NCBI RefSeq assembly: GCF_025061645.1
Contig: NZ_JANYMP010000003.1
Span: 62,001 to 126,000 of the forward strand
Source of the DNA: Umezawaea endophytica
Lineage (GTDB): Bacteria > Actinomycetota > Actinomycetes > Mycobacteriales > Pseudonocardiaceae
DNA: 64,000 nucleotides
Direction of reading: 5' to 3'
Shown: positions 31,894 to 49,569 of the stretch, piece by piece
Layout of the letters: each line of letters opens with the position of its first letter
Numbering within the stretch: the first letter of the stretch is position 1
The notes under the pieces: generated by a model
The model's input: only the letters and a program-made list of their open reading frames with translations
Told to the model about the DNA's origin: nothing
Databases searched by the model: none
Position numbers and translations under genes: made by a program

Positions 31894-33561
31894 TCAGAGC
31901 GCCGCCAGCCGCACCCCCAGCGTGTCCAGCCCCATGGACCCCATTTCCAGGGCCCGCATGTGGAACCGCTTGAGGTCGAACGCCGAACCGTGCCGCGCGC
32001 GGGCGTCACCGATGGCCTCGAGCCACAGGCGCTCACCGAGCTTGTACGACGTCGCCTGCGCGGGCCAGCCCAGGTAGCGGTCCACCTGACCCCGAGACTC
32101 CTCCTCGCGCACCGTGGTGCGGCTGAGGAAGAACTCCACCGCCAGCGCGGGCGTCCACCTCTCGCCCTCGTGGAACCCCGTGCCCTTGGGGATCGCGAGC
32201 CCCAGGTGCAGGCCGATGTCGAGGATCACCCGCGCGGAGCGGTACAGCTCCTCGCTGAGCGTGCCGAGGACGTCACCGTCGGAGCTGATGTAGCCGAGGT
32301 CGCGCATCAACCGTTCCGCGTACAGGGCCCAGCCCTCGCCGTGGCCGTAGGCGAACGCGAGCAGCCGCTGGTACTTGTTGAGCCGCTTCGCCTGGTACAC
32401 GGCGGTTCCGAGCTGGAGGTGGTGGCCCGGCACGCCCTCGTGGTACAGCCGCGAGACGTGCCGCCAGGTCGGGAACACGGTCCGGTCGGCGGGCGCGATC
32501 CACCAGGTGCTGCCCGGCCGGGAGAAGTCGTCGGTCGGCGCCGCGTAGTACTGGCCGATCGTCCCGCCGGGCGGGGCCTCCCGCACCTCGAAGCGCATCA
32601 GCTCGTCCGGGATGTCGAAGTGGACACCGCGCAGGTCCTGGAGCGCCTCGTCGCTGAGCTTCTGCATCCACGCGCCGTACTGCGCGCGGCCTTCCACGTG
32701 GTGGCGGGGATCGGCGTCCAGCAGGGCCGCGACCTCGGCGACCGACGCGCCCGGCTTGATCCGGCCCGCCACCTCGCGCATCTCCCGTTCGACGCGGGCG
32801 AAGTCGTCCCACGCCCACTCGTAGGCCGCGATCAGGTCGATCCGCGCGCCGAGGAACTGCCGCGACCACAGCGCGTAGATGTCCGGGCCGACGCCGTCGC
32901 GTTCGGGCGCTCGGGGGGCGATCCCGTGCAGGTGGTCCGCGAACTCGGCGAACGCCGCGGTCGCCGCCTTCGCGTTGACCTCCAACTCGGCGAGCAGGGC
33001 CGGGCCCACGACGCCTGCCGCGCCGCCGACGAACGTGGTGAAGAACGACTCGGTGCCCGACCGGCCCGACCACGTCTCGCACTGCGCGGCGACCGCGACC
33101 AACTGCCGAGCGGAGGTGGAGGTCCCGCGCCCGAGCGCCCGCGTCAGCGACGCGCCGAGACCCGTCAGCGCGTCCGGCACCTTCGCCATCCGCTTGGCGA
33201 TCTTCTCCCAGTCCTCCGCGGTCTCGGACGACATCAGGTCGAAGGTCAGCCGGATCTCCTGGATCGGGCTGTTGATCGTGTTGACGCACGCCTCGTCGAG
33301 CCCGGCCTCGTGCAGGGCGAGTTCGGTGCCCACCCGTTCGGTGAACACCTCCCTGGCGAGTTCCTCCGCCGCGTCGGCGGCCGGGGCGGTCGCGATCTCG
33401 CGCAGCGTGCGGGCCCGCAGCTCGCCGCGCGCCGCGTAGCCCTCCGGCGAGAAGTCGGTCATGTGCTCGTCGTGGCCGGGGACGCCGAGGTAGCTGCCGG
33501 TCAACGGGTCGAGCGCGGCGAACTCGGCGACATACCGGTCGGACAGCGCGTTGACGTTCAT
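31894..33561 (-). CDS. DUF885-family putative hydrolase
   Basis: The 555-residue protein belongs to the DUF885 family, with the zinc-peptidase-like block YHEGVPGHHLQLG and the following FAYGHGEGWALYAERLM. The family is thought to include metal-dependent carboxypeptidases or amidases; the substrate here is unknown. It is the last gene of the thirteen-gene operon and overlaps the luciferase-like gene by ATGA. It could trim a precursor peptide, remove a protecting residue, or hydrolyse the product for resistance. No signal peptide is seen. The ATG at 33561 has GAGGAAT upstream. Confidence 0.85.
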   Translation of the reverse strand: MNVNALSDRYVAEFAALDPLTGSYLGVPGHDEHMTDFSPEGYAARGELRARTLREIATAPAADAAEELAREVFTERVGTELALHEAGLDEACVNTINSPIQEIRLTFDLMSSETAEDWEKIAKRMAKVPDALTGLGASLTRALGRGTSTSARQLVAVAAQCETWSGRSGTESFFTTFVGGAAGVVGPALLAELEVNAKAATAAFAEFADHLHGIAPRAPERDGVGPDIYALWSRQFLGARIDLIAAYEWAWDDFARVEREMREVAGRIKPGASVAEVAALLDADPRHHVEGRAQYGAWMQKLSDEALQDLRGVHFDIPDELMRFEVREAPPGGTIGQYYAAPTDDFSRPGSTWWIAPADRTVFPTWRHVSRLYHEGVPGHHLQLGTAVYQAKRLNKYQRLLAFAYGHGEGWALYAERLMRDLGYISSDGDVLGTLSEELYRSARVILDIGLHLGLAIPKGTGFHEGERWTPALAVEFFLSRTTVREEESRGQVDRYLGWPAQATSYKLGERLWLEAIGDARARHGSAFDLKRFHMRALEMGSMGLDTLGVRLAAL

Positions 33562-34601: not shown

Positions 34602-34605
34602 GGCG

Positions 34606-35841
34606 TCACGCCGCCCTTTCCGCGGCCCTGGTGGTCGCCGCCCAACGTGCGATGGAGGGGGCCAGCAGGCCTGCCACCAGCAGGACCACCCCGAGCGCGA
34701 GCCAACCCGGCCACCCGGGACCGATGATCAGCGTCGTGACGACGATGGGGGTCACCATCGTGCCGAAGTTGGACGTCATGCCGAAGAAGCCCTGGTACTG
34801 CCCGTGGGCGTGCTCCGGCGCGAGTTCGTAGGCCAGCGCCCAGGAACCGGCGCTGTAGAGCAGTTCGCTGATCGCGTGCACGGCCGCGCCCGCGAACAGG
34901 AACGTGACCGCCAGCCACACCGGGCGATCGGCGGCGAGCGCGAAGAGGGCGCAGCACAGGGCGAGCAGCACCCCGCACCGCCGCAGCGCCCGCCCGCCGC
35001 CCTCGACGGTCTCCGCGCCCTTGCTGGCCCGCACCTGGAGCAGCACGACCATCACGGTGTTGAGCAGCAGGATGCCGGAGTACACCACCGGCGGCGCGTT
35101 CGTCTTCTGCGAGATCCAGATCGGCAGCGCCACGAGCAGGATGCCGACGTTCATCACGAGCACGACGTTGAGCAGTCCGAAGACCGCGAACGGCTTGTCC
35201 CGCAGCACTTCCCAGCGCGAGGCGGTCGCGGGTCGCTCGACCCGCCGCACGGCGGGCAGCTTGACGTACACCAGCCCGCTGGCCGCGTACATCACCGCGC
35301 ACACCAGCAGCAGCGAGACGTACACCCGCGGCGAGTTCGCGGTCAGCGCGAGGCCACCGATGAGCGCGCCGACCGAGAAGCCGATGTTGTTCGCGGCCCG
35401 CGTGTACGCCCGCGCCTTGATCCGCTCCTCCGAAGGCATGGCGGCGGCCACGAGCGCGGCCTGACCGCTGTACGCGCCGGACTCCGCCATGTAGACGAGG
35501 CTCGCGACGACCGCGAACGCCACCGGCCCGTCGACGAACACGTAGCCGGTGATCAGGGTCCCCTGCACGAGGTGGAAGGCGATCGTCCCGGTGCGGACGC
35601 CGATCACGTCGAGCAGGTGCCCGGCGGGGACGCCCACGAACATCCTGAGCCCGGCCGCGATGGTCAGCCCGATGCCGACCTGCGCCGCCGGGATGCCCAC
35701 GGAGGTGGTGAAGTACAGGATCAGGACGGTCAGCAGCATCCCGTTCGCCAGGCCGTGCGCCATGTTGGCCGAGAACAGCACCCTGATCGGACCCGGCGGT
35801 GGGTACACCTGGCGGATCACGTTCTCCCGCACCGAGGTCAT
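34606..35841 (-). CDS. MFS transporter
   Basis: The 411-residue protein has about a dozen hydrophobic segments and a major-facilitator pattern (VGVPAGHLLDVIGVRTGTI near the loop 2-3 motif). It probably exports the product of the surrounding cluster. The ATG at 35841 overlaps the adenylation-domain stop, and four bases separate its stop from the next gene. Confidence 0.85.
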   Translation of the reverse strand: MTSVRENVIRQVYPPPGPIRVLFSANMAHGLANGMLLTVLILYFTTSVGIPAAQVGIGLTIAAGLRMFVGVPAGHLLDVIGVRTGTIAFHLVQGTLITGYVFVDGPVAFAVVASLVYMAESGAYSGQAALVAAAMPSEERIKARAYTRAANNIGFSVGALIGGLALTANSPRVYVSLLLVCAVMYAASGLVYVKLPAVRRVERPATASRWEVLRDKPFAVFGLLNVVLVMNVGILLVALPIWISQKTNAPPVVYSGILLLNTVMVVLLQVRASKGAETVEGGGRALRRCGVLLALCCALFALAADRPVWLAVTFLFAGAAVHAISELLYSAGSWALAYELAPEHAHGQYQGFFGMTSNFGTMVTPIVVTTLIIGPGWPGWLALGVVLLVAGLLAPSIARWAATTRAAERAA

Positions 35842-37241
35842 GAGCCGACCGCCTCTCGGAGTCGTGCGCGGTCGGCCTTGCCGTTGACGTTGAGCGGGAT
35901 CTCGTCCAGGTGGTGGAAGCGCCTCGGGACCATGTGGATGGGCAGCCGCCGACGCAGCCACCGCACGAGCTGCGCGGTGGGGAGCGGCTCGCCGGTGAAG
36001 TACCCGACGAGTTCGGTCTCGGCACCGGTGTCCGCGGCGACCACGACCACGTCGCGAACGCCGTCGTGCTCCCGCACGCAGGCCTCCACCTCGCCGAGTT
36101 CGATGCGGTAGCCGCGGACCTTCACCTGGTTGTCCAGGCGGCCGAGGTGCACCCAGTGCCCGTCCTCCAGCCGAACCCGGTCACCGGTGCGGTAGTAGTG
36201 GTCCTCGGTCACGGGCAGGACGTTCGGCAGGAACCGCCCGGCGTCGTCGCTCGGATCGAGGTAACCGCCGAACCGCTGCGCACCGCGCACGCACAGCTCG
36301 CCGTCGTCTAGCACGACGGAGTCGAGGAAGTCGTACACCGGACCGATCGGCACGGTGCCGTTCGACGTCGACGGCCAGTCGCCGGGGTCCGCGGGCAGCG
36401 TGTACTCGGTGCAGGCCACGGTGAGTTCGGTCGGCCCGTAGACGTTCGTGATCGCCGCCGCCGGAGCGACGCCGTGCCACGCCGCGGCCTGCGCGTAGGT
36501 GAACTGCTCGCCGATGAACACGCTGTGCCGCAACGAGTTCGGCACACCGCTCGGCAGGTTCCCCAGCCCGGCGCTGACCGACACGACGGACGGCACCGAG
36601 AACCAGTGCGTGATCCCGCGCTCGGAGAGGTACTTCACCGGCTCCATCAGCTCGGTGCGGTCGGGCACGACGAGGGTCGCTCCCCCGCCCCACGTGACGA
36701 ACAGGTCGAAGACCGACGGGTCGAAGGTCAGGTCGAAGGTCTGCGACATCCGGCAGCCGGGCCCCACGTCGAACTTCGCGATGTTGTGCGCGATGTACGG
36801 AGCGAGGTTGGCGTGCGTGATCGGCACGCCCTTGGGCCTGCCGGTCGACCCGGACGTGAACAGCACGTACGCCACGTCCTGCGGCACGCACTCGGCCAAC
36901 GGCCCGTCGCTGCCCTCGATCCGCCCGTCGAGCACCAGGTCCGGTCGGGCGAGCGCCAGGATCACGTCGTTGCGGGCCCGCGGGTGGGCAGGGTTGATCG
37001 GGGTCACGACCGCGCCGAGCCGCAGCGCGGCCAAGTACCCCAGGTAGGTGGCCGGTTCACGGGTGGCGGGCAGCACGATCCTGCGCGGGGCGCTCCCGTG
37101 CGCCGCCAGGATCCCCGCGGCCAGCGCGTCGGACCTCTCCTGGAGCTCCCGGTAGGTCAGGGTCAGGCCGTCGACCTCGATGGCGGGGTGGTCCGGGTAG
37201 CGGCGCACGGAGTCCTCGAACCACTGGTACAGCGCGGTCAT
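35838..37241 (-). CDS. Free-standing amino-acid adenylation domain
   Basis: The 467-residue protein is a complete A domain with no carrier: FTSGSTGRPKG, TFDPSVFDLF at A4 (Asp235 equivalent kept), NVYGPTELT, YYRTGDRVRL, VKVRGYRIELGEVE and NVNGKADRARL. It must charge a carrier elsewhere: candidates are the carrier of the C-T-C protein, the free PCP at 44699, or the ACP at 40328, none of which has its own A domain. I could not assign a substrate from the pocket residues. It overlaps FkbH and MFS genes by four bases each. Confidence 0.88.
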   Translation of the reverse strand: MTALYQWFEDSVRRYPDHPAIEVDGLTLTYRELQERSDALAAGILAAHGSAPRRIVLPATREPATYLGYLAALRLGAVVTPINPAHPRARNDVILALARPDLVLDGRIEGSDGPLAECVPQDVAYVLFTSGSTGRPKGVPITHANLAPYIAHNIAKFDVGPGCRMSQTFDLTFDPSVFDLFVTWGGGATLVVPDRTELMEPVKYLSERGITHWFSVPSVVSVSAGLGNLPSGVPNSLRHSVFIGEQFTYAQAAAWHGVAPAAAITNVYGPTELTVACTEYTLPADPGDWPSTSNGTVPIGPVYDFLDSVVLDDGELCVRGAQRFGGYLDPSDDAGRFLPNVLPVTEDHYYRTGDRVRLEDGHWVHLGRLDNQVKVRGYRIELGEVEACVREHDGVRDVVVVAADTGAETELVGYFTGEPLPTAQLVRWLRRRLPIHMVPRRFHHLDEIPLNVNGKADRARLREAVGS

Positions 37242-38281
37242 GAGAGCCTCACCGCGTCCAGGCGCATCGTCGTCGGCGCGTCGTGGCGCCCCGGTACCAG
37301 GTGCAGGTGCTCGACGGCCTCGGTGGTGCGCACCGCCTCGACACAGGCGCACGGGTCCGTGCGGAACCCCGCGAAGCGGTAGGCGATCTCCATCATCCGG
37401 TTGCGCTCGGTCTTGCGGAAGTCCGCGACGAGGTGCACGCCCGCCGCCGCGGCCTGGTCGCAGAGCCAGCGCAGCAGCACCGCGCCCGCGCCGAACGCGA
37501 CCACCCGGCACGAGGTCGCGAGCAGCTTGAGGTGCCACACCCGCTCGTGCCGCTCGACCAGCAGCAGGCCGACCGCGCCGTGCGGGCCGAACCGGTCCGA
37601 CATGGTCACGACCAGCACCTCGTGCCGTGGATCCGCCAGCAGCCCGCGCAGCGCGGCGTTCGAGTAGTGCACGCCGGTGGCGTTCATCTGACTGGTCCGC
37701 AGGGTCAGCTCCTCGACCCGCGCCAGCTCGTGCTCGGTGGCGCGACCGATCGTCATCACCAGGTCCAGCGACTTCAGGAACTCCTCGTCCGCGCCGGAGT
37801 AGGACGCACGCGCCTCGTCGCGGCGGAACCCGGCCTGGTACATCTCCCGGCGCCGCGCGGAGTCGGTGGTGGTCGTGTCCGGGGTGAACTCCGGCAGGCC
37901 CGGCAGCGACGTCGCCTGGGTCGCGTCGTAGCACCGCACCGCGGGCAGGTGGAAGGCGACCTCCGCGCGCTCGGTCGGCTGGTCGTCGATGAACGCGATC
38001 GTGTCGTGGGCGAAGTTCAGCCGCTCGGCGATGGCGCGCACCGAGTCGGACTTCGGCCCCCACCCGATGCTCGGAAGCACGAAGAACTCCGCGACGCCGA
38101 GCTTCTCCAACCACTCCCAGGCGTGGTCGTGGTCGTTGCGGCTGGCGACGGACTGGAGGATCCCGCGCTCGTCGAGCGCGGTGATCACGTCCCGGATCCC
38201 GTCGGACAGCTCGGGTACCCCGCCCTCGGCGATGGTGCACGGCCACAGCGTCCGGTCGAGGTCCCACACGAGGCACTTCAC
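37238..38281 (-). CDS. FkbH-like glyceryl-ACP synthase
   Basis: The 347-residue protein has an N-terminal HAD domain (VWDLDRTLW, with the two catalytic Asp) and a C-terminal GNAT-like domain (FGAGAVLLRWLCDQAAAAGV). FkbH proteins dephosphorylate 1,3-bisphosphoglycerate and load the glyceryl group on an ACP. With the ACP, acyl-CoA dehydrogenase and hydroxyacyl dehydrogenase genes next door, this builds a hydroxymalonyl- or alkoxymalonyl-ACP extender. The GTG start overlaps the KAS III stop. Confidence 0.9.
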   Translation of the reverse strand: MKCLVWDLDRTLWPCTIAEGGVPELSDGIRDVITALDERGILQSVASRNDHDHAWEWLEKLGVAEFFVLPSIGWGPKSDSVRAIAERLNFAHDTIAFIDDQPTERAEVAFHLPAVRCYDATQATSLPGLPEFTPDTTTTDSARRREMYQAGFRRDEARASYSGADEEFLKSLDLVMTIGRATEHELARVEELTLRTSQMNATGVHYSNAALRGLLADPRHEVLVVTMSDRFGPHGAVGLLLVERHERVWHLKLLATSCRVVAFGAGAVLLRWLCDQAAAAGVHLVADFRKTERNRMMEIAYRFAGFRTDPCACVEAVRTTEAVEHLHLVPGRHDAPTTMRLDAVRLS

Positions 38282-39240
38282 AGTTCCCACAGGGTCACCG
38301 CCCAGGCCGCCACCGGACTGTTGTTGAGCACCAGCACGAAATCCCCCTCCGCGAGCTCGCCGCTCGCCAGCAGGCAGTCGAGGTTGAGCACCACGTCCAT
38401 GGCTCCGAGGTGCCCGTACCTGGTCAGGTTCTCCTTGCACAGCGGGTGGATCGACAGGTCCAGGAGGGACTCGTAGAAGTCGTACGCGCTCGCCGTGACG
38501 TTCTGCATCAGCGTCGTCGCGACCCGGTCCGGCGCCACACCCGCGTCGGCGAGCACGGCCGCGACCAGCTTGCGCAGCCGGACCTTGCTGTGCATGGCCA
38601 GCTCGAACCGGTAGCGGTCCGGCGACTGGCACCGCTCGCTCCACTCGTACCAAGGCGTCTGCTTGTAGTCGACCTCGAACAGGTCGTGGAACGCGCCGTC
38701 GGTGGCCATCCGGTGGGCGCGCAGCACCGGCCTCCCGCCGCGCACCAACGTCATCGCGAACGCGCCGTCGCCGATCACCGTGACCGGGTACCGCACCCGG
38801 TCCGCCCCGGTCGGCCTGCTGGCGTGCGTGATCAGCACCGACTCCCGGCCGGGGTCGGCGAGCAGCAGGTCGCGCCCGATCGCCCACGCCGCGCTGGACC
38901 CCGCGCACCCCAGCCCGTCGACGGTGAACGCGAACGCCCCGGTCAGCTTGGCCTCGGACTGGACCCGGCACACGTCCGAGCCGAGCAGCACGTCGGGCGC
39001 GCGCGGCCCCACCATCATCAGCAGGTCCGGCTCGACGGGGTCGCGTTCCAGCAGTTCCCGGCACGCCCTGGCGGCCAGCGCCCCGGACTGGGCGTCGGCG
39101 AACTCGGCGATCGTCCCGATCCCGCACGCGCGGGCGAACGCCGCCTCGTCGTGACCGAGCGCCTCGAACTCCGGCAACCGCTCCACCGGGACCAGCACGT
39201 CCGGCAGCACGCAGTGGATCGTCCCCACACCGATGCTCAT
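38278..39240 (-). CDS. KAS III-like protein with a non-standard active site
   Basis: The 320-residue protein has the thiolase fold of FabH-type enzymes. The nucleophile Cys is in DGLGCAGSS. The usual HQAN histidine region reads TLMQNV, and the usual GNTS asparagine region reads YGHLGAMD, so the standard Cys-His-Asn triad is not present. A His and an Asp in the last block could form a different set, as in acyl- or ester-forming KAS III relatives such as CerJ. The protein may move an acyl group to an O or N nucleophile rather than make a C-C bond. It overlaps its neighbours by four bases. Confidence 0.82.
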   Translation of the reverse strand: MSIGVGTIHCVLPDVLVPVERLPEFEALGHDEAAFARACGIGTIAEFADAQSGALAARACRELLERDPVEPDLLMMVGPRAPDVLLGSDVCRVQSEAKLTGAFAFTVDGLGCAGSSAAWAIGRDLLLADPGRESVLITHASRPTGADRVRYPVTVIGDGAFAMTLVRGGRPVLRAHRMATDGAFHDLFEVDYKQTPWYEWSERCQSPDRYRFELAMHSKVRLRKLVAAVLADAGVAPDRVATTLMQNVTASAYDFYESLLDLSIHPLCKENLTRYGHLGAMDVVLNLDCLLASGELAEGDFVLVLNNSPVAAWAVTLWEL

Positions 39241-40331
39241 GCCGCACCCGCCAGCAGCAACCGGCAGATCTCGTTGCTGCCCTCGATGATCTCCATCAGC
39301 TTGGCGTCCCGGTACGCCCTGGCCACCGGGTGGCCGTCACGGGCGCCCGCCGACCCCAGCACCTGGACCGCGGAGGCCGCGCCGCGCGCCGCGTTGGTGG
39401 CCGCGACGTGCTTGGCGAGCACGGACGCGATCACCAGGTCCGGCGACCCGTCGTCCCAGCACGTGCTCGCGTGCTCGCACATCCTCGTCGCGACCTGCTC
39501 GGCCACGAGGAGTTCGGCGAGGTGCTCGGCGACCAACTGGTGTTCCGCCAACGGTTTGCCGGACTGCGTCCGCGACCGCGCGTGGCTCGCCGCCGCTTCG
39601 CGGCAGGAGCGGAGGATGCCGACGCACCCCCAGGCGATCGACACCCTGCCGTAGGTCAACGCGGACGTCACCAGCAGGCTCAGCGACTGCCCAGCGGCAC
39701 CGAGCAGGTGATCGGCGGGGACCCGGACCGAGTCGAGCCGCACGGTCGCGTGCCCGGCCGCGCGGCAGCCCAGCGGGTCCTCGACCCGTTCGACGACCAC
39801 CCCGGCCGCGGCGGTCGGGACGACCACGGCGGCGGCGCCGTCGCCGAACCGGCCGAAGACCACGACCAGGTCGGCGTAGGCGCCGACGGTGATCCAGACC
39901 TTCTCCCCCGACACCACGACGTCGTCGCCGTCGCGCCGGATCTCCGTCGCCATCGCGGCGAGGTCGCTGCCCGCCTCGGGTTCGCTGAACGCGACCGCGG
40001 CCAGCTCACCGCCGGTCAGCCTGGGCAGGAACGCGGTGCGCTGCCGCCGCGAGCCCAACCGGGTGATGACCCACGCGGCCATGCCCTGCGACGTCGCCAC
40101 GCTCCTCGTGGACCCGCAGAGCGCGCCGAGGTGCGCGGTGAGTTCCCCGTTCTCCTTGCTGGACAGGCCGAGCCCGCCGTCCTTCACCGGGACCTGGGCG
40201 CAGAGGACACCCGCGGACCCGAGGTCGCGCAGCAGGTCGAGCGGCAACCGACCGGCGCGGTCCCACTCGCCCGCCCGGTCGCCGACGCGGTCGCTGACGA
40301 GTTCTCGGGCCGAGCCGAGCGCGTCGCTCAC
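39237..40331 (-). CDS. Acyl-CoA dehydrogenase-family protein (FkbI type)
   Basis: The 364-residue protein has AFSEPEAGSDLAAMATEIRRDGDD and the C-terminal YRDAKLMEIIEGSNEICRLLLA of flavin acyl-CoA dehydrogenases. In methoxymalonyl-ACP cassettes this enzyme oxidises the glyceryl-ACP-derived aldehyde stage to the malonyl form. The GTG at 40331 overlaps the ACP stop. Confidence 0.9.
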   Translation of the reverse strand: MSDALGSARELVSDRVGDRAGEWDRAGRLPLDLLRDLGSAGVLCAQVPVKDGGLGLSSKENGELTAHLGALCGSTRSVATSQGMAAWVITRLGSRRQRTAFLPRLTGGELAAVAFSEPEAGSDLAAMATEIRRDGDDVVVSGEKVWITVGAYADLVVVFGRFGDGAAAVVVPTAAAGVVVERVEDPLGCRAAGHATVRLDSVRVPADHLLGAAGQSLSLLVTSALTYGRVSIAWGCVGILRSCREAAASHARSRTQSGKPLAEHQLVAEHLAELLVAEQVATRMCEHASTCWDDGSPDLVIASVLAKHVAATNAARGAASAVQVLGSAGARDGHPVARAYRDAKLMEIIEGSNEICRLLLAGAA

Positions 40332-41406: not shown

Positions 41407-44400
41407 GAGTTCCTCCCCAGGTCCGGCAGCACGCCCCGCATGTCCGCGTTCCGCTCCGCCAGGAACGCCAGCCCCGCCCGCAGCGCAGGCCCGGTCGGCG
41501 CCGACCCGAGGCCCGCCTCCCGCAGCCAGGAGCGCCACGCGGTGGCCTCCAGACCGTCCTCGCCCAACTGGTGGCCCTCGATCTCGTAGAGCGCCATCGT
41601 GGACAGCACGGCGTTGCCCGTCGCCAGCGCCTCCTTGCCGACCCGGTCCTGCCAGTCGTCGGCGGACATCGGTTTCGTCGACAGGTCCAGCAGTTCGAAC
41701 ACCTCCCGCAGGCTGTGGCACCGCTCGTCGATCAGGTGGTAGGCGCGGCCGATCGCACGGGGGTCCCTGGACAGCTCGGCTATCGCCCTGGACACGACGT
41801 CGACCGGTGCCATCGGCATCGCCCGGTCGTCCAGCGGGTGCGCGCCGACCGCGAGACCGCTCGCGAGGATGTGCCAGATCAGGTCCCGGTCGTTGCACGC
41901 GCCGGTGCCGCTGTCGGCCAGGACGAAACCGGGCCGGAACACCCGCACCCGCATCCCGTCCGCCTCGGCTCGTTCAAGCAGGCGTTCACCGACCCACTTG
42001 CTCGCGCCGTACCCGCCCTGCTGCGGGTCGAGCGACTGGGAGCGCTGTTCCAGGATCCGGTCGTCCACGCCCAGTGCGGGCGCGGTCGCGGCCACGGTCG
42101 AGACGAACGAGAACTCGCCGACGCCGTTCTCGCGCATCCACCGCAGCAGCTCGACCATCGGCAGCACGTTGTCCTCGCGCAGCACCCGGTACGGCTCGGT
42201 GAACACGACCTTCGCGGCGCAGTGCAGCACCTGCCCGACGTGGGTGGACAGCTCGTCGTCCTCGCGGCAGATCCGCCCGATGTCCCGCAGGTCGCCGAGG
42301 ACCGGCCGGACCCGCGTCGGATCCGGTTCCGGGAGCGCGAACTTCGCGGCGGCGGCCCGCAACCGCGCCCAGGCGGCCTCCTCGTCGGCGGCCCGGACGA
42401 CGCAGTGCACCCGGCCCTCCCCCGCCTTCAGCAGCTCGTGCAGCACGAACGCGCCCAGGAAGCCGGTGGCGCCGGTGAGCAGGACGTCCGAGCCGGTCCC
42501 GCTCGGCGCGACCTCACCGAGCGGGAGCCGCATGTCGGCGTCCATGAGTTCGCCGTCGCCGTCCGCGATCGGGTCGATGTCGGCCGATCCCCGCAACGCT
42601 CCCGCCTGTTTGGCCCGCACGATCTCGGCGATCCGGCGCACGGTCGCCCGGCTGCCGCCCGCGCGGTGCACGTTGACCAGCACGCCTTGGCGCTGCTGCA
42701 ACTCCAGGGCCATCCGCACGGACAGCAGCGACGTGCCGCCGAGCGAGCCGAACTCGTCGTCGAGCCCGACGTGGTCCACCCCGAACAGCTCGGTCCACAC
42801 CGCCGCGACGTCGCTCTCGACGTCGTCGCCGACCGATTTCTCCACGACGGCTTCCAGCGCCCCGACGACCTCGGGCACGGCGGCGATCGGTGGCAGCCGG
42901 TCGAGGGCCCAGTAGCGCTTGCGCTGGAACGGGTACGTGGGCAGGCCGACCCGCCGACCGGTCGACACGGCGGCCCAGTCGACCTCGACACCGTGCAGCC
43001 AGGCCTCGTGGAGCACGTCATCGCCTGGCGTGAGCACGACGGTGCCCTCGGGCGTGGACAGCGGCGCTTCGGCGACGACCTGGGTGTCCGCGGGCAGACC
43101 CAGCGGGACCTCGCCGTCGGAGACCACCACCGCACGCCGGGCGGTCGCGCGCATCGTGCGTGCCGCAGGAGGTCTCGGCAGCCTGAGCACGGCGGCCAGC
43201 CTGTCGGGCGGCGCGGTGACCACCCGCCGCTCCACAAAGGACTTCCGGCCCACCTTCAGGGTGTGCGCCACGTCCTCGACGTCGTGCACACCGCGGTCGA
43301 GCTCGTCGGCCAGCCGCTTGGCCATGGCGTCCAGCTCGGCACGGGTGCGCGCGGACAGGACCAGCCGCACGACCTCACCCGACGGCGCGGAACCCCGCGC
43401 CTGCGGCGGTGGCGCGGCGAGCACGGCGGCGACGTTCGTCCCCCCGACACCCATCGAGTTGACCAGGACGTGGCGGCCGGGCTCGGTGGCGGACCCCGCC
43501 GTCCCCGACAGGAAGAACGGGCTGCCCGCCAGCTCGCCCTCGTCACGGGCCCGCTCGAAGAACGGGTGGGGCGGCAGGATCCCGGTGTGCGCGATGTGCA
43601 CGGCCTTGATGAAGCCCGCGATCCCGGCGGCGGGCCCGCAGTGCCCCAGGTTGGTCTTCACCGAGCCGAGCCCGCAGAACCCGGTCCTGGTCGTGCCGCT
43701 CCGCAGGCCCTTGCTCAGGCCCACCAGCTCCACGTGGTCGCCCAGCGGCGTGCCGGACCCGTGCGCCTCCACGTACCGCAGGTCGTCGGCGGACACCCCC
43801 GCGACCCGGAGCGCCGTCGCCACGACGTCGGCGACCCCGGCGGGGCTCGGCGCGGTGTAGCCGGGGCGGTCCGCGCCGTCGTTGCCGACCGCGCTGCCCT
43901 TGACCACCGCCAGCACCGGATCGCCGTCGGCGAGCGCGTCCGACAGGCGCCGCAGCGCGACCACGCCGACGCCGGAGCTGAACGAGGTGCCGCTGGAGCG
44001 GGCGTCGAAGGACCGGCAGAACCCGTCGTCCGACATGAGCCCGCCGGGCTGGTAGTGGTAGCCCGCCAGCGGTTCCAGCACGGTCGCGCCGCCCGCGAGG
44101 GCGATGTCGCACTCCCCGGACAGCAGGCTCAGCACCGCGTAGTGCACGGCGTAGAGCGACGACGAGCACGCCGTCTGCACGCTCACCGCGGGGCCGCGCA
44201 GCCCCAGTTTGTGGGCCACCCGCGAGGTCAGGAAGTCGGCCTGGCCGCCGAGGGTGAGGTCGAGGTCGTCGATGGCGGCGGCGAGGCCTTCGCGCTGCGC
44301 CTTCGCCGCGAACACCGCCGCCGAGTAGGTGCCCGCCGCGCTGCCCGCGAACACCCCGGTCACCGGGCCGTCCTTGCGGGGCGTGTGCCCGGCGGCCTCC

Positions 44401-44702
44401 AGCGCCTCCCAGCAGACCTCCAGGAAGATGCGCTGCTGCGGGTCGATCGTGTCCACCTCGGCGGGCGGGTAGCCGAAGAACTCGGCCGCGAAGTCGGTCG
44501 CGCCCGGCAGGGACGTGCCCTTCGCGACGAAACCCGGTCGGGCCGCCACGTCGTCGGAGATCCCGCCCGCGCGGCGCTGCTCCTCGGTCAGGTCCTGGAT
44601 GGACACCCGGCCCGCGTCGATGTTGCGCCAGAAGTCCTGCGGGGTCCAGGCGTCCGGGAACCGGCAGCCCACCCCGACGACGGCGATGTCGGTCGCGCTC
44701 AC
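41403..44702 (-). CDS. AT-less type I PKS: KS-linker-ACP-thioester reductase
   Basis: The 1099-residue protein has a ketosynthase (1-about 430) with Cys179 in TACSSSL and both His (EAHGSGTPLGD, NLGHCGPAAG). It continues with the KS-AT linker (LSARTRAELDAMAKRLADEL) and then reaches the post-AT motif TYPFQRKRYW with no acyltransferase GHSxGE-type motif between. A carrier (Ser658 in LGGTSLLSV) and a reductase domain from about 735 (TGATGFLG, YGASK) complete it. The extender must come from elsewhere, most simply the FkbH-loaded ACP. The reductase would release an aldehyde or alcohol. The GTG at 44702 overlaps the free PCP stop. Confidence 0.9.
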   Translation of the reverse strand: MSATDIAVVGVGCRFPDAWTPQDFWRNIDAGRVSIQDLTEEQRRAGGISDDVAARPGFVAKGTSLPGATDFAAEFFGYPPAEVDTIDPQQRIFLEVCWEALEAAGHTPRKDGPVTGVFAGSAAGTYSAAVFAAKAQREGLAAAIDDLDLTLGGQADFLTSRVAHKLGLRGPAVSVQTACSSSLYAVHYAVLSLLSGECDIALAGGATVLEPLAGYHYQPGGLMSDDGFCRSFDARSSGTSFSSGVGVVALRRLSDALADGDPVLAVVKGSAVGNDGADRPGYTAPSPAGVADVVATALRVAGVSADDLRYVEAHGSGTPLGDHVELVGLSKGLRSGTTRTGFCGLGSVKTNLGHCGPAAGIAGFIKAVHIAHTGILPPHPFFERARDEGELAGSPFFLSGTAGSATEPGRHVLVNSMGVGGTNVAAVLAAPPPQARGSAPSGEVVRLVLSARTRAELDAMAKRLADELDRGVHDVEDVAHTLKVGRKSFVERRVVTAPPDRLAAVLRLPRPPAARTMRATARRAVVVSDGEVPLGLPADTQVVAEAPLSTPEGTVVLTPGDDVLHEAWLHGVEVDWAAVSTGRRVGLPTYPFQRKRYWALDRLPPIAAVPEVVGALEAVVEKSVGDDVESDVAAVWTELFGVDHVGLDDEFGSLGGTSLLSVRMALELQQRQGVLVNVHRAGGSRATVRRIAEIVRAKQAGALRGSADIDPIADGDGELMDADMRLPLGEVAPSGTGSDVLLTGATGFLGAFVLHELLKAGEGRVHCVVRAADEEAAWARLRAAAAKFALPEPDPTRVRPVLGDLRDIGRICREDDELSTHVGQVLHCAAKVVFTEPYRVLREDNVLPMVELLRWMRENGVGEFSFVSTVAATAPALGVDDRILEQRSQSLDPQQGGYGASKWVGERLLERAEADGMRVRVFRPGFVLADSGTGACNDRDLIWHILASGLAVGAHPLDDRAMPMAPVDVVSRAIAELSRDPRAIGRAYHLIDERCHSLREVFELLDLSTKPMSADDWQDRVGKEALATGNAVLSTMALYEIEGHQLGEDGLEATAWRSWLREAGLGSAPTGPALRAGLAFLAERNADMRGVLPDLGRNS

Positions 44703-44992
44703 CTGACCTCCCGCCGAGCCCGGCCGAGCAGCGCCGAACGGGACGCCGCGGCGACGACGGGACGCTCGTCGGTGCCGTCGAGGAACTCGCTCTGCGCCAC
44801 CACGGTGCTGTGCTCGAACAGGTCCGCCGCCTTGAGGTCGCGGGCGGTCAGCTCGGTCAGCCGCTCCCAGAGCAGCAGCAACAGCAACGAGTTGCCGCCT
44901 GCCTCGAAGAAGCTGACGTCGAGCGGCACGGCGTCGGTCTCGACGTCCAGCGCGTCGGCCCACGCCTCGCGTACTTGCTCCAGTGTGGACAC
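44699..44992 (-). CDS. Free-standing peptidyl carrier protein
   Basis: This 97-residue protein is one carrier domain with FFEAGGNSLLLLLL (phosphopantetheine Ser in GGNS) and an unusual run of Leu after it. The GTG start directly follows the stop of the C-T-C gene. It has no A domain and may be loaded by the free adenylation protein at 35838. The last 25 residues are a basic tail, possibly a docking element for the PKS encoded next. Confidence 0.85.
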   Translation of the reverse strand: MSTLEQVREAWADALDVETDAVPLDVSFFEAGGNSLLLLLLWERLTELTARDLKAADLFEHSTVVAQSEFLDGTDERPVVAAASRSALLGRARREVR

Positions 44993-47815
44993 TCAGTTCT
45001 CCCCCAGGGTAGGCGAATCGAGGTCGGCCACCAGGTCGGTGGCCGCGGCCGTGATCCCGGCCAGCAAGCGCGTGATCGTGGTCTCGTCGAACAGGTCGAC
45101 CTGGTAGGCGGCGGCGAGCCGCAGACCTCCGTCCAGGTCCGTCGCGGTCAGCTCCAGTTCGTACTTCACCGCGACGGGGTCCAGCGGGAGCTGCTCGCCT
45201 CCCATGGGCGGTCGCCACCCGTCGACGTCGGCGGCGACGTACACCGGCGTGATCGGCGGGCGGCTCAGGTCGCGGTCCGGGTGCAGGGCGCCGACCACGG
45301 CGTCGAACGGCACGTCCGCCGCCCGGTACGCGGCCGAACCGGCCCGGCGCACGCGGTCCAGCAGCTCCCGCCACGTCGGGTCGCCGCGCAGGTCGACCCG
45401 CAGCGCCAGGGTGTTCACGAACATCCCGACCGCGTGCGGGTCCGTTCGCCCCGACCACGGGAACGCGAAAAGGAAGTCCCGCTGGTCGCCCCGCCGCGCC
45501 AGGGTGACCGCCAGCAGCGCCGCCGTCACCAGGAACGTGCCGCACCCCGACCCGGCCGCGGTCGCGCGCACCGACTCCGCGGTCCCGGCGTCGAGCGTGG
45601 TGGTGCGGGTGGCGCCGAGGATCGACTGCGTGGTGCCGCGTGGCCGGTCGTGCGGGAGGGCGACGTCCGTCGGGGCGCCTGCGAGCACGGCGATCAGGTC
45701 ACCGGGGTCCGCGGGAGCCTCGACCGCCGCCGGGCGCACGGGCGGCGGCAGTTCCCGCCCCGACACGACGGCGTCGACCTCGTCGAGCAGCACCCGCACC
45801 GACGCGCCGTCCACGACCATGTGGTGCGCGCACAGCACCAGCAGGACGCGGTCGCGCGTCCGCGCCAGCGCCGCCCGGACCGGTGCCTCGTCGGCGAGGT
45901 CGAACGGCGTCCAGCACAGGTCGGCGACGTGGTCCTCCAGCTTGACCGGGTCCCAGCCGCGCGCGTCCGTGACGGTCGCCGAAGCCGGTGCCCCGGAGGT
46001 CGTGCGGACGACCTGCTTCCGCCTGCGGTCCAGGGTGAACCGCGACCGGAGCGCGGGGTGCCGCGCGAGCACCACGTCGAGCGCCGCCCGCAGGGCCTCG
46101 ACGTCGACGTCGTCGGGGAACTCGACGACCGTCGGCACGAGGTAGGCGGCACGCAGTTCGGGCATCCGGTCCAGGAACCAGAACCGCTGCTGCGTCGAGG
46201 TCGCCGGGAACGGGCCGTCGTCGGCCTCCACCACCGGTCCGGTGGTCCGCGCGCCCGCGTCGAGCAGCGCGGCGAGCCGGGCGACGGTCGGCTCGGCGAG
46301 GAACTCACCCGGCCGCACGGCCACGCCGCACCGCGCCTGGGCACGCGCCACCATGCTCACCGCCAGCAGCGAATGACCGCCCAGCACGAAGAAGTTCGAG
46401 TCCCTGCCCAGGTCGACCTCGTCGACGCCCGCCTCGGCCAGCACGTCGCGGAACAACGCGGCGGCCAGGCGCTCCCGACCGGTCAGGTCACCGGCGTCGG
46501 TCGTCACGACCGGCGTCTCCCACGGTGGGGCGGGTTCCGGGACCGCCAGTGGGCCGTGGGGCAGCCGGAACTCGCGCAGCGGGGCGTCGGGGGCGCTCAC
46601 GCCGTGGCGCAGCACCGCCACGAAGTCCTCGGCCAGCCGAGGACCCAGCTCGACCGGGTAGCGCTCGACGTCGAAGTCCAGCGTGCCGACCAGTCCGTCC
46701 GGCGTCTCGTCGATGATGAGCAGGACGTCGAATTTGGCCACGCCGGTCGGCAGCACCCGCGGGGCCGTGCACCTGGTCGACCGAGGCGCGGGCATGTTCT
46801 GCACCACGAACCCGACGTCGACCACTCCCCGTCCGGGCAGTGCGGCGACCAGGTCGCGGTACGGGACGCGCTGGTTGGTCATGGTGGCGAACGCCTCGCG
46901 GCGCAACCCGGCGCAGCGCTCGGCGAACGTGGCCCCGCACGTGGTGCAGCGCAGCGGCACCGTGTTGACGAAGAAGCCGACCAGGTCCTCCACCGCCGGG
47001 TGGGTCCGGTTGGCGGTGACCGCGCCCACCAGGAACTCCTCGCGCGCGGACCACCGGCTCAGCGCCTCGGCGTAGGCCGCGAGCAGCACGACGAACGGCG
47101 TGACCCGCAGCCCCTTCGCCAGCGCGGTCAGCGCCGAGCACGTGTCGTCGGGGAGGTCGAACCGGTGCTGGGCGCCCGCGTGGATCCCGTCCGGGACCTC
47201 CCTGGCGCCGCCGAGCCGCAGCTCGGCCGGTGTCGTCGCCAGTTCGTCGGCGCGGCGGGCGAGCAGCCCCTCGTCGGCAACAGCCCGGTCCCACACCGCG
47301 AAGTCGGCGTACTGCACCGGCAGTTCCGGCAGCCGCGGCGGCTCGCCCGCGACGGCGGCGGCGTACGCGGCGTCGAGGTCCTCGAAGAGCGGGGCGAGCG
47401 ACCACCCGTCCACCGCGATGTGGTGGATCGTCAGCAGCACCGCGTCACCACCCGTTCGTCCTCGCCGGACGGCGCAGCGCACCAGCGGTCCGGCGGCGAG
47501 GTCGAACCCGCGCCGGGCCTCCGCTTCGAGGTCGTGGTCGACGACCTCGACAGTGACCCGCGGTTCGCCGATGACCTGCACCAGTCCCCCGTCGTCCTCC
47601 CGGTAGGTCGTGCGCAGCACCTCGTGCCTCTCGACGACCGCGAGCAGCGCCACGCGCAGCGCCTCGACGTCGACCGCTCCCCGCCACTCGACCAGCAGCG
47701 GGACGGTGTAGACCGGCGACCCTGGCGCGGCGGCGTCGATGAACCACAGGCGTTCCTGGGCGGAGGACAGCGGTGCGGTCCGAGCCCCGAGCCTGTGCAA
47801 CCGGGGCTCGCTCAT
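44993..47815 (-). CDS. NRPS C-T-C protein without an adenylation domain
   Basis: The 940-residue protein has a condensation domain (about 10-430) with HHIAVDG, a carrier (about 485-555; FVLGGHSLLAV) and a second condensation domain (about 565-930) with HHMVVDG. Both condensation active sites look intact. The carrier must be charged in trans. C1 should join the residue from the A-T protein to this carrier's residue; C2 passes the chain to the free PCP. The ATG at 47815 shares one base with the A-T stop codon (TGATG). Confidence 0.9.
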   Translation of the reverse strand: MSEPRLHRLGARTAPLSSAQERLWFIDAAAPGSPVYTVPLLVEWRGAVDVEALRVALLAVVERHEVLRTTYREDDGGLVQVIGEPRVTVEVVDHDLEAEARRGFDLAAGPLVRCAVRRGRTGGDAVLLTIHHIAVDGWSLAPLFEDLDAAYAAAVAGEPPRLPELPVQYADFAVWDRAVADEGLLARRADELATTPAELRLGGAREVPDGIHAGAQHRFDLPDDTCSALTALAKGLRVTPFVVLLAAYAEALSRWSAREEFLVGAVTANRTHPAVEDLVGFFVNTVPLRCTTCGATFAERCAGLRREAFATMTNQRVPYRDLVAALPGRGVVDVGFVVQNMPAPRSTRCTAPRVLPTGVAKFDVLLIIDETPDGLVGTLDFDVERYPVELGPRLAEDFVAVLRHGVSAPDAPLREFRLPHGPLAVPEPAPPWETPVVTTDAGDLTGRERLAAALFRDVLAEAGVDEVDLGRDSNFFVLGGHSLLAVSMVARAQARCGVAVRPGEFLAEPTVARLAALLDAGARTTGPVVEADDGPFPATSTQQRFWFLDRMPELRAAYLVPTVVEFPDDVDVEALRAALDVVLARHPALRSRFTLDRRRKQVVRTTSGAPASATVTDARGWDPVKLEDHVADLCWTPFDLADEAPVRAALARTRDRVLLVLCAHHMVVDGASVRVLLDEVDAVVSGRELPPPVRPAAVEAPADPGDLIAVLAGAPTDVALPHDRPRGTTQSILGATRTTTLDAGTAESVRATAAGSGCGTFLVTAALLAVTLARRGDQRDFLFAFPWSGRTDPHAVGMFVNTLALRVDLRGDPTWRELLDRVRRAGSAAYRAADVPFDAVVGALHPDRDLSRPPITPVYVAADVDGWRPPMGGEQLPLDPVAVKYELELTATDLDGGLRLAAAYQVDLFDETTITRLLAGITAAATDLVADLDSPTLGEN

Positions 47816-49569
47816 CAGGCGGCCCCGGAGTAGCGCAAACGGGCGTTCAGCTCCGCCGCGGACTCGGCCAGAAGGATGTCCGACGGCTCTATCCGGCCTA
47901 TCAGCCCCGGATTGAGGCGGGACGCGACCTGGACCGCCAACAGCGAGTTCCCACCCAAATCCAAGAAGTTGTCGGAGGGATCGACGTGAGGCACTTGAAG
48001 GACTTCTTTCCAGATCCGACAAAGATCATCGGCGGTGCCGGCACCCGTTTCCCCGACAATTGGGCGGGACGCTTCCCAGAGCGCCAAGAGCTGGTCCCGA
48101 TCAGCTTTTCCGGTCGCACCCAGAGGCACCTCCGAGAGCACGATCCAGCGAGCCGGAACCATGTAGTCCGGTAATCGCGCGGCCAAGCCCAGGTGCAGTG
48201 CGGCGGGCAGCTCGACCGCGCCCGCGGCGTTCGGCAGCACGAATCCGACGAGGATCGCGGCGGGTCCTTCGCCGATCTTCTCGACGAACGCGGCGGCCAC
48301 CAGACCCGTCGCCGAAAGGGCCTGCTCGACCTCCTCCAGCTCGATGCGGAAGCCCCGCAGCTTCACCTGCCGGTCCTTGCGCCCGACCACCTCCAGCGCG
48401 CCGTCCGGCCGCTGTCTGACCAGGTCACCCGTGCGGTAGACCCGCTCCGCGGAGCCGGGCGCGAGGACGAACCGCTCCGCCGTGAGGTCGGGGCGACCGA
48501 GGTACCGCAGCGCGACGCCGGGGCCGCCCACGCACAGCTCCCCCGTCTCGCCCGGCGTCACCGCGCCGAGGTGGTCGTCGAGCACGTGCAGCGTCGTGTT
48601 CTGGAGCGGGAAGCCGATCGGCGTCCGGACCACGTCGCGCATCGACTCCCCGGTGCACTCGAACGCAGCCGCGAACGTCGTGGTCTCGGTCGGGCCGTAG
48701 CCGTTGACGACGTGCCGGGGCGGGCCAGCGTCCAGCACCGCCCGCACCACGTCGGCGTCGAGCTGCTCGCCGCCGACGACCAGGCGCACGAGGTCCCGGA
48801 ACGCCGACGGGCGCTCACGCGCGATGGAGTGGAACAGCGAGGTCGTGAGGAACATCGTGCTGATCGAGAGGGCGCGCAGCTCCGCCACCCACTCGTCGAG
48901 GGTGAGGTCCACCGGTGACGAGACGGCGACGACCGTGCCGCCGACCGCGAGCGGCGCCCACACCTCGAACGTCGTCGCGTCGAACGCCGGGTTCGAGAGG
49001 CTGGCGACCCGGTCCTCGGGACCGAGCGGGCAGTAGGCGGCCTCGGTGACGAGGCGGACGACCGCGCGGTGCGGCACCACGACGCCCTTCGGCCGCCCGG
49101 TCGAGCCGGAGGTGTACGCGACGTACGCGGGATCCTCCCGACCGACCGGCACCGCTCCGACCTGCGTCGACGCGTGTCTCGGCACGGTGAGCGCCAGCAT
49201 GCCGCCGGGCAGCCGCCCGGTCCAGCGGGAGCCCGCGGCGGAGCGCACGACGACGCGCGGCGCGGCCTCGTCGAGGATGGTGGCCAGCCGCTCGGCCGGT
49301 GCTCGGTTGTCCAGCGGGAGGTAGGCGGCGCCCGCGCGCAGGACGCCGAGGAAGGCCACCACCAGGTCGACCGACGGGTCCACCGCGACCGCGACCAGGT
49401 CACCCGGCCGGACACCGAGGTCGACGAGGTCGTGCGCGAGGGAGCCCGAGAGGTCCCACAGCCCGCGGTAGTCGACCTCCCGCTCCGCGTCGACCACGGC
49501 GGCGGAGCCGGGCCGTCGTTCCACCTGGTCGCGAACCAACGTCAACACCGTGCGCTCGTCGGCGTACAA
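47815..49569 (-). CDS. NRPS initiation module A-T
   Basis: The 584-residue protein has an A domain (YTSGSTGRPKG, FDATTFEVW, NGYGPTETT, VYRTGDLV, VKLRGFRIE, ATGKADRDQ) and a carrier (LDLGGNSLLAV). Reading pocket positions by eye gives D-A-F-F-V-G-G-T-F, closest to codes for Val or Ile, so a branched aliphatic residue is the best guess. The start is TTG at 49569: AGGAGGT lies eight bases upstream, and an in-frame TGA lies just before it. It is the first gene of the operon. Confidence 0.88.
   Translation of the reverse strand: MYADERTVLTLVRDQVERRPGSAAVVDAEREVDYRGLWDLSGSLAHDLVDLGVRPGDLVAVAVDPSVDLVVAFLGVLRAGAAYLPLDNRAPAERLATILDEAAPRVVVRSAAGSRWTGRLPGGMLALTVPRHASTQVGAVPVGREDPAYVAYTSGSTGRPKGVVVPHRAVVRLVTEAAYCPLGPEDRVASLSNPAFDATTFEVWAPLAVGGTVVAVSSPVDLTLDEWVAELRALSISTMFLTTSLFHSIARERPSAFRDLVRLVVGGEQLDADVVRAVLDAGPPRHVVNGYGPTETTTFAAAFECTGESMRDVVRTPIGFPLQNTTLHVLDDHLGAVTPGETGELCVGGPGVALRYLGRPDLTAERFVLAPGSAERVYRTGDLVRQRPDGALEVVGRKDRQVKLRGFRIELEEVEQALSATGLVAAAFVEKIGEGPAAILVGFVLPNAAGAVELPAALHLGLAARLPDYMVPARWIVLSEVPLGATGKADRDQLLALWEASRPIVGETGAGTADDLCRIWKEVLQVPHVDPSDNFLDLGGNSLLAVQVASRLNPGLIGRIEPSDILLAESAAELNARLRYSGAA

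What the first reader, a model, noticed from the sequence alone, without database searches (positions are those of the whole stretch)
31894..49569. Orphan NRPS-PKS cluster written as thirteen tightly coupled genes
Eleven of the twelve junctions overlap by 1-4 bases or abut, and one has a gap of four. It combines A-T (Val/Ile-like), C-T-C, a free PCP, an AT-less KS-ACP-reductase, a free A domain, an FkbH extender cassette, an odd KAS III, a luciferase-like oxygenase, a DUF885 hydrolase and an exporter. I do not recognise a known product; a short peptide-polyketide aldehyde or alcohol with an oxygenated C2 extender is the best reading.
Basis: partly seen in the sequence, partly recalled or inferred. 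Interest (0 to 1): 0.75.

Follow-up and report, generated by a model that had tools for sequence, protein, structure and literature searches.

The report
Peptide-polyketide cluster with unusual extender loader
Thirteen tightly packed bacterial genes look like an assembly line for a short peptide capped by an oxygenated two-carbon unit, and an enzyme of the KAS III fold appears to do the loading job normally done by a different enzyme family.

Summary
In detail: thirteen minus-strand genes fill 31894-49569, and 11 of 12 junctions overlap or abut. They encode A-T, C-T-C, PCP, AT-less KS-ACP-R, a hydroxymalonyl-ACP cassette (HADH, ACP, ACAD, FkbH), KAS III, free A, MFS, MupA/PuwE-type LLM and DUF885. 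One relative (L036) keeps all 13 in order; a core (PCP, KS-ACP-R, KAS III, free A) recurs in 12 of 15 loci, window included. Ten literature searches showed no characterised relative; some lists were capped and MIBiG was not available.

Its FabH His is Gln, its FabH Asn is His277, and Asp282 lies five residues on: the Cys-His-Asp triad of the acyltransferases CerJ and ChlB3. In 21 of 21 KAS III loci with a KS in the fetched DNA around the gene, the partner KS lacks an AT; 4 of 4 KAS III-free FkbH loci with a KS have ATs. My best reading: KAS III loads the extender in place of an AT. This is inferred. Four loci carry KAS III and FkbH with no KS nearby, one of them 8-10 kb from an ordinary KS-AT PKS. 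Product: probably a tripeptide-hydroxymalonate aldehyde or alcohol, untested.

The parts
47815..49569 (-). NRPS A-T; pocket residues DAFFVGGTF (Val/Ile-like; positions and meaning recalled)
   Evidence: Pfam AMP-binding, PP-binding; pocket by motif alignment
44993..47815 (-). NRPS C-T-C, both C domains with HHxxxDG
44699..44992 (-). free PCP
   Evidence: PF00550 1.8e-12
41403..44702 (-). AT-less KS-ACP-R (thioester reductase)
   Evidence: TIGR01746 235.5 bits, cut-off 213.35; no AT listed by Pfam or found by own AT HMM at 1e-8
40564..41406 (-). 3-hydroxyacyl-CoA dehydrogenase-like (FkbK-type)
   Evidence: PF02737/PF00725
40328..40567 (-). discrete acyl carrier protein (FkbJ-type extender ACP)
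   Evidence: PF00550 24.9 bits, cut-off 20.8; found in 13 of 14 related loci
39237..40331 (-). acyl-CoA dehydrogenase-like (FkbI-type)
   Evidence: PF00441/PF02770/PF02771
38278..39240 (-). KAS III-fold protein with Cys112-His277-Asp282; proposed extender-unit acyltransferase
   Evidence: triad reference PMC9573744 (passages)
37238..38281 (-). FkbH (glyceryl transferase/phosphatase)
   Evidence: TIGR01686 368.1 bits, cut-off 146.65
35838..37241 (-). free adenylation domain, pocket DPFFVIVVA
   Evidence: Pfam; pocket pattern in 10 of 12 loci, window included
34606..35841 (-). MFS exporter
   Evidence: PF07690
33558..34601 (-). MupA/Atu3671-family FMN luciferase-like monooxygenase
   Evidence: TIGR04020 483.8 bits, cut-off 244.45; PDB PuwE 6ket E 7.2e-105
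31894..33561 (-). DUF885 putative metallohydrolase (HEGVPGHH)
   Evidence: PF05960 2.7e-134; PDB 3iuk 1e-131; sequence
49982..50803 (+). divergent gene, possible SAM methyltransferase (VLEVGMGYTT), likely cluster neighbour
   Evidence: homologues near the cluster in L036, L037, L040, L043, 62-79% identical; weak PDB O-methyltransferase matches, best E 0.0012; no significant Pfam or NCBIfam hit

Best explanation
A discrete NRPS-PKS assembly line. A-T charges a Val/Ile-like residue; the free A charges the free PCP and, as there are three T domains and only two A domains, perhaps also the T of C-T-C; C1 and C2 build a di- or tripeptide on the PCP (inferred). FkbH, HADH and ACAD make hydroxymalonyl on the discrete ACP (by homology). 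The KS module has no AT; the KAS III protein, with the Cys-His-Asp triad of KAS III-fold acyltransferases, moves hydroxymalonyl from the discrete ACP to the ACP of KS-ACP-R (inferred). It works like CerJ/ChlB3; I do not file it as a member of that clade. KS adds the two-carbon unit and R releases an aldehyde or alcohol (by homology). The LLM oxygenates an alpha-carbon on a carrier, more likely on the residue set by the free A than on the extender carbon (weak). MFS exports. DUF885 is accessory.
For: Family hits. Triad: in the 2ebd alignment FabH His meets Gln246 and FabH Asn meets His277 (FabH roles recalled); C112, H277 and D282 are identical in 19 of 19 aligned sequences down to 38% identity. 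ChlB3 and CerJ use Cys-His-Asp with Asp five residues after His; CerJ moves malonyl, ChlB3 moves acyl groups ACP to ACP (PMC9573744 passages). Distribution: partner KS without AT in 21 of 21 KAS III loci that show a KS; AT present in 4 of 4 KAS III-free FkbH loci that show a KS (Fisher 8e-5; 3e-4 if L049 is counted against; neither corrected for shared ancestry). KAS III stays beside KS-ACP-R where FkbH is missing: L046 and L047 with an ACP, L037 without one found; G250 (draft genome, L046) has no FkbH match at 0.001. MupA hydroxylates alpha to the thioester on an ACP (PMC10952193 passages).
Against: KAS III plus FkbH occurs with no KS in the DNA around it in L038, L039, L049 and L101. In L049 a KS-AT PKS on the other strand begins 8.4 kb away (AT) and 9.7 kb (KS). 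L048 has an additional KS-AT module 6-8 kb from its KAS III. FabH-type structures outscore ChlB3 and CerJ in the profile search. The ChlB3 paper itself calls the KSIII homologues other than CerJ Claisen-condensing. KAS III-linked KS form two clades and the unrooted tree cannot count AT losses. The genome has 66 AT matches at 1e-10, any of which might act in trans. Gln246 with His277 might still support condensation. That the FkbH cassette makes hydroxymalonyl rests on homology. No chemistry was observed.
Confidence: 0.52

Rival explanations
1. The KAS III is itself a condensing or starter-type (DpsC/AlpE-like) enzyme: it takes an aminoacyl or acyl group and condenses it with hydroxymalonyl-ACP, and KS-ACP-R is fed in trans by a FabD-type malonyl transferase.
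For: L038, L039, L049 and L101 have KAS III, ACP, ACAD and FkbH with no KS in the DNA around them. DpsC is among its PDB matches and has the same GHLG..D stretch. A DpsC-like KSIII (AlpE) is essential in the AT-less alpiniamide line and is read as a starter enzyme (PMC6113372 passages). FabH-type enzymes outscore CerJ in the profile search.
Against: The position of the FabH His is Gln in 18 of 19 and Pro in one. A line begun by A-T needs no acyl starter. KAS III is kept with KS-ACP-R where no FkbH is seen (L037, L046, L047).
Confidence: 0.24
2. The KAS III is an acyltransferase that puts hydroxymalonyl (or another acyl) on an amine or hydroxyl of the peptide as a cap, as CerJ does on a sugar, and KS-ACP-R uses ordinary malonyl from FabD with LLM adding the alpha-hydroxyl.
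For: CerJ precedent; A-T plus cassette without KS in L038 and L039; MupA-type LLM can supply an alpha-hydroxyl.
Against: The pairing with AT-less KS modules would be unexplained, and KAS III persists without FkbH.
Confidence: 0.15
3. The product is an alpha-hydroxy-beta-amino acid or alpha-keto peptide (bestatin/amastatin- or poststatin-like protease inhibitor) made through the LLM and reductive release.
For: Nearest solved LLM relative is PuwE, predicted to help form a 3-amino-2-hydroxy acyl (PMC4219810 passages). A recurring C-terminal core with more variable N-terminal NRPS genes would fit a warhead plus variable recognition peptide.
Against: No cluster for these compounds was seen in the listings (20 of 108 papers shown; 9 of 10; 7 of 7), so there was nothing to compare with. 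The carbon count does not give a one-carbon extension without an unproven carbon loss (own reasoning). The one named genome hit, S. olivoreticuli L035, is only a 32% KS match.
Confidence: 0.09

Closest known systems
Zwittermicin A hydroxymalonyl-ACP pathway (PMC4207774, passages)
   Same: ACP-borne hydroxymalonyl extender in an NRPS-PKS line
   Different: Zwittermicin uses an AT domain (ZmaA-AT) to load it; here no AT is seen and a KAS III-fold protein is the candidate loader
CerJ / ChlB3 KAS III-fold acyltransferases (PMC9573744, passages)
   Same: Cys-His-Asp triad with Asp five after His; CerJ moves malonyl, ChlB3 moves acyl ACP to ACP
   Different: Neither is described there as loading a polyketide extender; sequence similarity is low (ChlB3 E 1.3e-15, CerJ 3e-7 with profile)
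MupA and PuwE monooxygenases (PMC10952193 and PMC4219810, passages)
   Same: MupA names the TIGR04020 family; PuwE 6ket is the nearest solved relative
   Different: Substrate here unknown; co-occurs with a cassette whose extender would already bear an alpha-hydroxyl. PuwE's domain is part of a large hybrid enzyme, here the gene is free-standing like MupA
Pepstatin cluster (PMC12081711, search listing and passages)
   Same: Short peptide-polyketide from discrete, trans-acting NRPS and PKS genes
   Different: F420-dependent ketone reduction after assembly; FkbH and KAS III were not among the terms I looked up in that paper
Alpiniamide trans-AT line (PMC6113372, passages)
   Same: AT-less PKS with NRPS and a DpsC-like KSIII (AlpE) essential for production
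   Different: A trans-acting acyltransferase is described; AlpE is interpreted as a starter enzyme

Membership tests
FkbH-type hydroxymalonyl-ACP cassette | FkbH HAD-family glyceryl transferase | tested here: met
   TIGR01686 368.1 bits against 146.65
FkbH-type hydroxymalonyl-ACP cassette | 3-hydroxyacyl and acyl-CoA dehydrogenases plus discrete ACP | tested here: met
   contiguous 41406-39237
FkbH-type hydroxymalonyl-ACP cassette | O-methyltransferase (would make methoxymalonyl) | tested here: inconclusive
   none among the 13 genes; 49982-50803 has only a weak O-MT signal
FkbH-type hydroxymalonyl-ACP cassette | hydroxymalonyl-ACP actually formed | not testable with these tools
   needs enzyme assay
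KAS III-fold acyltransferase (CerJ/ChlB3 type) | Cys-His-Asp triad, Asp five after His | tested here: met
   C112/H277/D282 in 19 of 19; reference triad
KAS III-fold acyltransferase (CerJ/ChlB3 type) | closest solved sequence relatives are acyltransferases rather than FabH | tested here: not met
   best profile matches are FabH-type 2ebd and 4ryb; ChlB3 ninth and CerJ 37th of 38; hence not filed as a member
KAS III-fold acyltransferase (CerJ/ChlB3 type) | acyl transfer without condensation | not testable with these tools
   needs enzyme assay
trans-AT (AT-less) PKS | KS module without AT | tested here: met
trans-AT (AT-less) PKS | discrete AT encoded in the cluster | tested here: not met
   no AT in the 64 kb window by own AT HMM at 1e-8
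Condensing KAS III (FabH) | Cys-His-Asn (recalled) | tested here: not met
   His to Gln246, Asn to His277
MupA/Atu3671 LLM family | TIGR04020 above cut-off | tested here: met
   483.8 bits against 244.45

The most novel reading that the evidence does not exclude
A clade of KAS III-fold proteins with a Cys-His-Asp triad has taken over the role of the AT in loading ACP-borne (hydroxy)malonyl extenders onto AT-less KS modules in one large bacterial family, in at least two architectures (KS-ACP-R and KS-ACP-C): a third way, beside in-line AT and discrete trans-AT, to feed a modular PKS. It serves a recurrent family of peptides that end in an oxygenated, reductively released C2 head group.
Probability: 0.47. 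Interest if true: 0.75.

Novelty: new variant of a known kind. Interest (0 to 1): 0.55.

Why it matters
If the KAS III loads the extender, AT-less PKS modules have a loading route that annotation would file as a fatty-acid KAS III, and FkbH clusters could be sorted by whether they use an AT or a KAS III. It would give a new handle for placing hydroxymalonyl units in engineered lines. The recurring core with more variable N-terminal NRPS genes points to an unexplored compound family that may carry an aldehyde or alcohol head group.

Tried and rejected
Known products considered: bestatin, amastatin, poststatin, eurystatin (no cluster seen in the listings; one search showed 20 of 108 papers, and PMC12472026, a bestatin-mentioning S. 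olivoreticuli genome paper, was not opened); pepstatin (passages), foxicin (passages) and solanimycin (abstract and section 12 part 1) differ. L035 (S. olivoreticuli), the only named genome hit, is a 32% KS match and was dropped.

The siderophore-type importer at 27.8-31.75 kb (same strand, 143 bases from DUF885) was tested as part of the cluster: its binding-protein and ATPase queries gave no match above 100 bits in L036-L068, so it is left out; the two permease queries of that call were mis-framed and prove nothing. DUF885 as a core gene: found in 1 of 14 related loci. Two independent AT losses: not shown. In the KS tree the two KAS III-linked groups are each one clade, but an unrooted tree cannot count losses, and one AT-linked row (L075, long branch 1.58) groups with the KS-ACP-R clade at 97/94. 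Rows left out of that tree: L044 (KS split; so 11 of 12 loci of that group), the L048 edge KS, and fragments under 350 aa. A single-sequence fold of KAS III was poor (mean pLDDT 43.1) and was not used. A fold of 49982-50803 was never accepted.

Limits. The AT test covered 9 of the 22 low-identity (35-41%) KAS III hits and all 15 high-identity ones (own included), 3 of which show no KS. The AT list was cut off, so my own AT HMM was used. Paper lists were capped (20 of 108; 9 of 10; 20 of 53; 15 of 16).

Mended on re-check: the KS-AT PKS near L049 lies 8.4-9.7 kb from its KAS III, not the 13 kb that I had noted; the main odds went from 0.55 to 0.52, the novel case from 0.50 to 0.47, and the first rival from 0.22 to 0.24 for that reason; the product rival went from 0.10 to 0.09.
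Full report
Observation. The thirteen genes are real and in one run on the minus strand. With the starts I chose, junctions are -1, 0, eight of -4, +4, and -4. Family scans give A-T, C-T-C, PCP, KS-ACP-R, HADH, ACP, ACAD, KAS III, FkbH, A, MFS, LLM, DUF885. I took ATG 47815 as the start of C-T-C; a longer TTG frame to 48022 exists. I ran no control on how unusual the coupling is; such operons are common in high-GC bacteria (recalled), and conserved order is the stronger evidence.

Relatives. Of 297 genomes of its family, 31 (own included) have a KAS III match at 1e-20; 14 places in other genomes are 61-80% identical to the window protein, and 22 further places, some in the same genomes, are 35-41% identical. 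The 15 genomes with the window gene or a high-identity match bear 8 genus codes. Of 396 genomes drawn from the phylum, 2 match at 1e-40, the own genome and one other. In the 20 kb fetched around the 14 high-identity genes: KS-ACP-R in 11 of 14, PCP in 11, free A in 11, LLM in 9, MFS in 7, discrete ACP in 13, HADH in 11, ACAD in 11 (a 29% match in L037 not counted), FkbH in 10 (split in L039, partial in L044), A-T at 55-69% in 9 (cut or partial in L044, L045, L048), DUF885 in 1. L036 has all 13 in the same order. The recurring core is PCP, KS-ACP-R, KAS III and free A, mostly with LLM.

KAS III. Pfam barely sees it (24.7 bits, cut-off 26.6). In the alignment to 2ebd, Cys112 meets the FabH Cys, Gln246 the FabH His and His277 the FabH Asn (FabH roles recalled); DpsC has the same GHLG..D stretch. 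Cys112, His277 and Asp282 are identical in 19 of 19 aligned proteins; position 246 is Gln in 18 and Pro in L049. In ChlB3 the triad is Cys113/His296/Asp301; mutating the CerJ or ChlB3 residues abolished or nearly abolished transfer (PMC9573744, passages). Against this, that paper describes the KSIII homologues other than CerJ as Claisen-condensing, and FabH-type structures score best in the profile search, so kinship alone does not file it with CerJ.

AT test. I built an AT HMM from 14 fetched AT domains and scanned L036-L086 and the window at 1e-8. KAS III loci that show a KS: window, L036, L037, L040-L048, L050-L053, L078-L081, L086, that is 21; the partner KS module has no AT in 21. Nearby ATs that are not in the partner module: L053, an AT 12.8 kb from its KS on the other strand; L048, an extra KS-AT module 6-8 kb from KAS III, running into L061. 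KAS III loci without KS in the same stretch: L038, L039, L049; L049 has a KS-AT PKS on the other strand 8.4-9.7 kb off (L059). L101, from another family, has ACP, ACAD, KAS III, FkbH and C-A-T on a 12.6 kb contig without KS by tblastn or AT by HMM. The FkbH genes over the cut-off in the 15 genomes all lie in loci that I scanned. Of 13 fetched FkbH loci without KAS III (L069-L077, L082-L085), 4 show a KS (L070, L071, L074, L075) and all 4 have ATs; in L082, L084 and L085 my single-sequence FkbH HMM saw nothing although TIGR01686 had. Pfam finds KS-ACP-C without AT in L050 and L052 and KS-ACP-R without AT in L037. Fisher by locus is 8e-5, or 3e-4 with L049 counted against, but the loci are related and the KS tree cannot count AT losses.

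Extender and LLM. FkbH, HADH, ACAD and ACP are the hydroxymalonyl-ACP set (pathway recalled; zwittermicin passages). L037, L046 and L047 lack FkbH, HADH and a close ACAD, and draft genome G250 (L046) has no FkbH match, so the extender there may be malonyl. The LLM is MupA-type; MupA hydroxylates a beta-ketoacyl-ACP at the alpha-carbon (PMC10952193, passages). FMO enzymes also hydroxylate glycyl residues in NRPS lines, as told in the solanimycin paper (PMC10204066, section 12 part 1). LLM follows the free-A pocket and not FkbH: of 12 loci with a free A, the 10 with DPFF[VIL]IV[VI]A have LLM; the 2 with other pockets (L041, L048) have none in the DNA fetched (Fisher 0.015), and their genomes G208 and G141 are not among the 24 of 297 with an LLM match at 1e-120. 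That favours action on the residue chosen by the free A; it is a small sample. Pocket positions were assigned by motif from recall. The best solved match of the free A is the second A domain of LgrA; that this domain takes glycine is recalled.

Release and product. The R domain keeps TGATGFLG and YGASK and passes TIGR01746. With a Val/Ile-like first residue and two further carrier sites, a tripeptide ending in CO-CH(OH)-CHO or CO-CH(OH)-CH2OH, possibly with one more oxygen, is my best guess. Whether it is reduced further, cyclises or is methylated by 49982-50803 is unknown.

Literature. Ten searches of the held open library showed no description of this cluster or of a KAS III protein loading an extender unit; four lists were capped, most listed papers were not opened, and the library lacks most subscription papers.

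Noticed in passing
560-25509: A second secondary-metabolite cluster, mostly on the plus strand: chorismate enzymes with GATase, A-T, C-A-T-R, DAHP synthase, flavin reductase, HpaB, O-methyltransferase (minus strand), luciferase-like/F420-type protein, gamma-glutamyltranspeptidase and a UvrA-like protein; looks like a pyrrolobenzodiazepine cluster with a UvrA-like resistance gene (product class recalled).
   Followed up: partly
27809-31750: Iron-siderophore type ABC importer (ATPase, FecCD permease, binding protein) directly downstream of DUF885; binding protein and ATPase gave no match above 100 bits in the fetched relatives.
   Followed up: partly
52938-57539: RHS-repeat protein with a C-terminal Col-Pyo DNase domain and weak, below-cut-off WXG100-like N-terminal matches: probable interbacterial polymorphic toxin.
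   Followed up: no
49982-50803: Conserved gene with a VLEVGMGYTT motif near the cluster in L036, L037, L040, L043; maybe a methyltransferase family not covered by Pfam or NCBIfam.
   Followed up: partly
50742-51329: Small protein with a weak, below-cut-off mycothiol maleylpyruvate isomerase/DinB-type match; a 76% homologue lies next to the L036 cluster (L067).
   Followed up: no
L050 (G000:C24:112000-131900): The same genome holds a second KAS III, FkbH, HADH, ACAD, ACP cassette with an AT-less KS-ACP-C NRPS-PKS; KAS III 39% identical.
   Followed up: partly
L038:5129-14459 and L039: Mini-cluster A-T, HADH, ACP, ACAD, KAS III, FkbH with no KS. In both genomes (G146, G092) it lies next to a second, lower-scoring NAD-dependent DNA ligase besides a high-scoring one elsewhere; the own genome also has a lower-scoring second ligase, so a resistance role is only a guess.
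   Followed up: partly
L047:8878-10104: Glyoxalase/HPPD-like dioxygenase gene next to KS-ACP-R in a variant cluster lacking the FkbH cassette.
   Followed up: no
L046 and L047 A-T genes: Variant clusters have A domains with pocket DFW(S/N)VGMVH, a threonine-type code (recalled), placed after the LLM.
   Followed up: no
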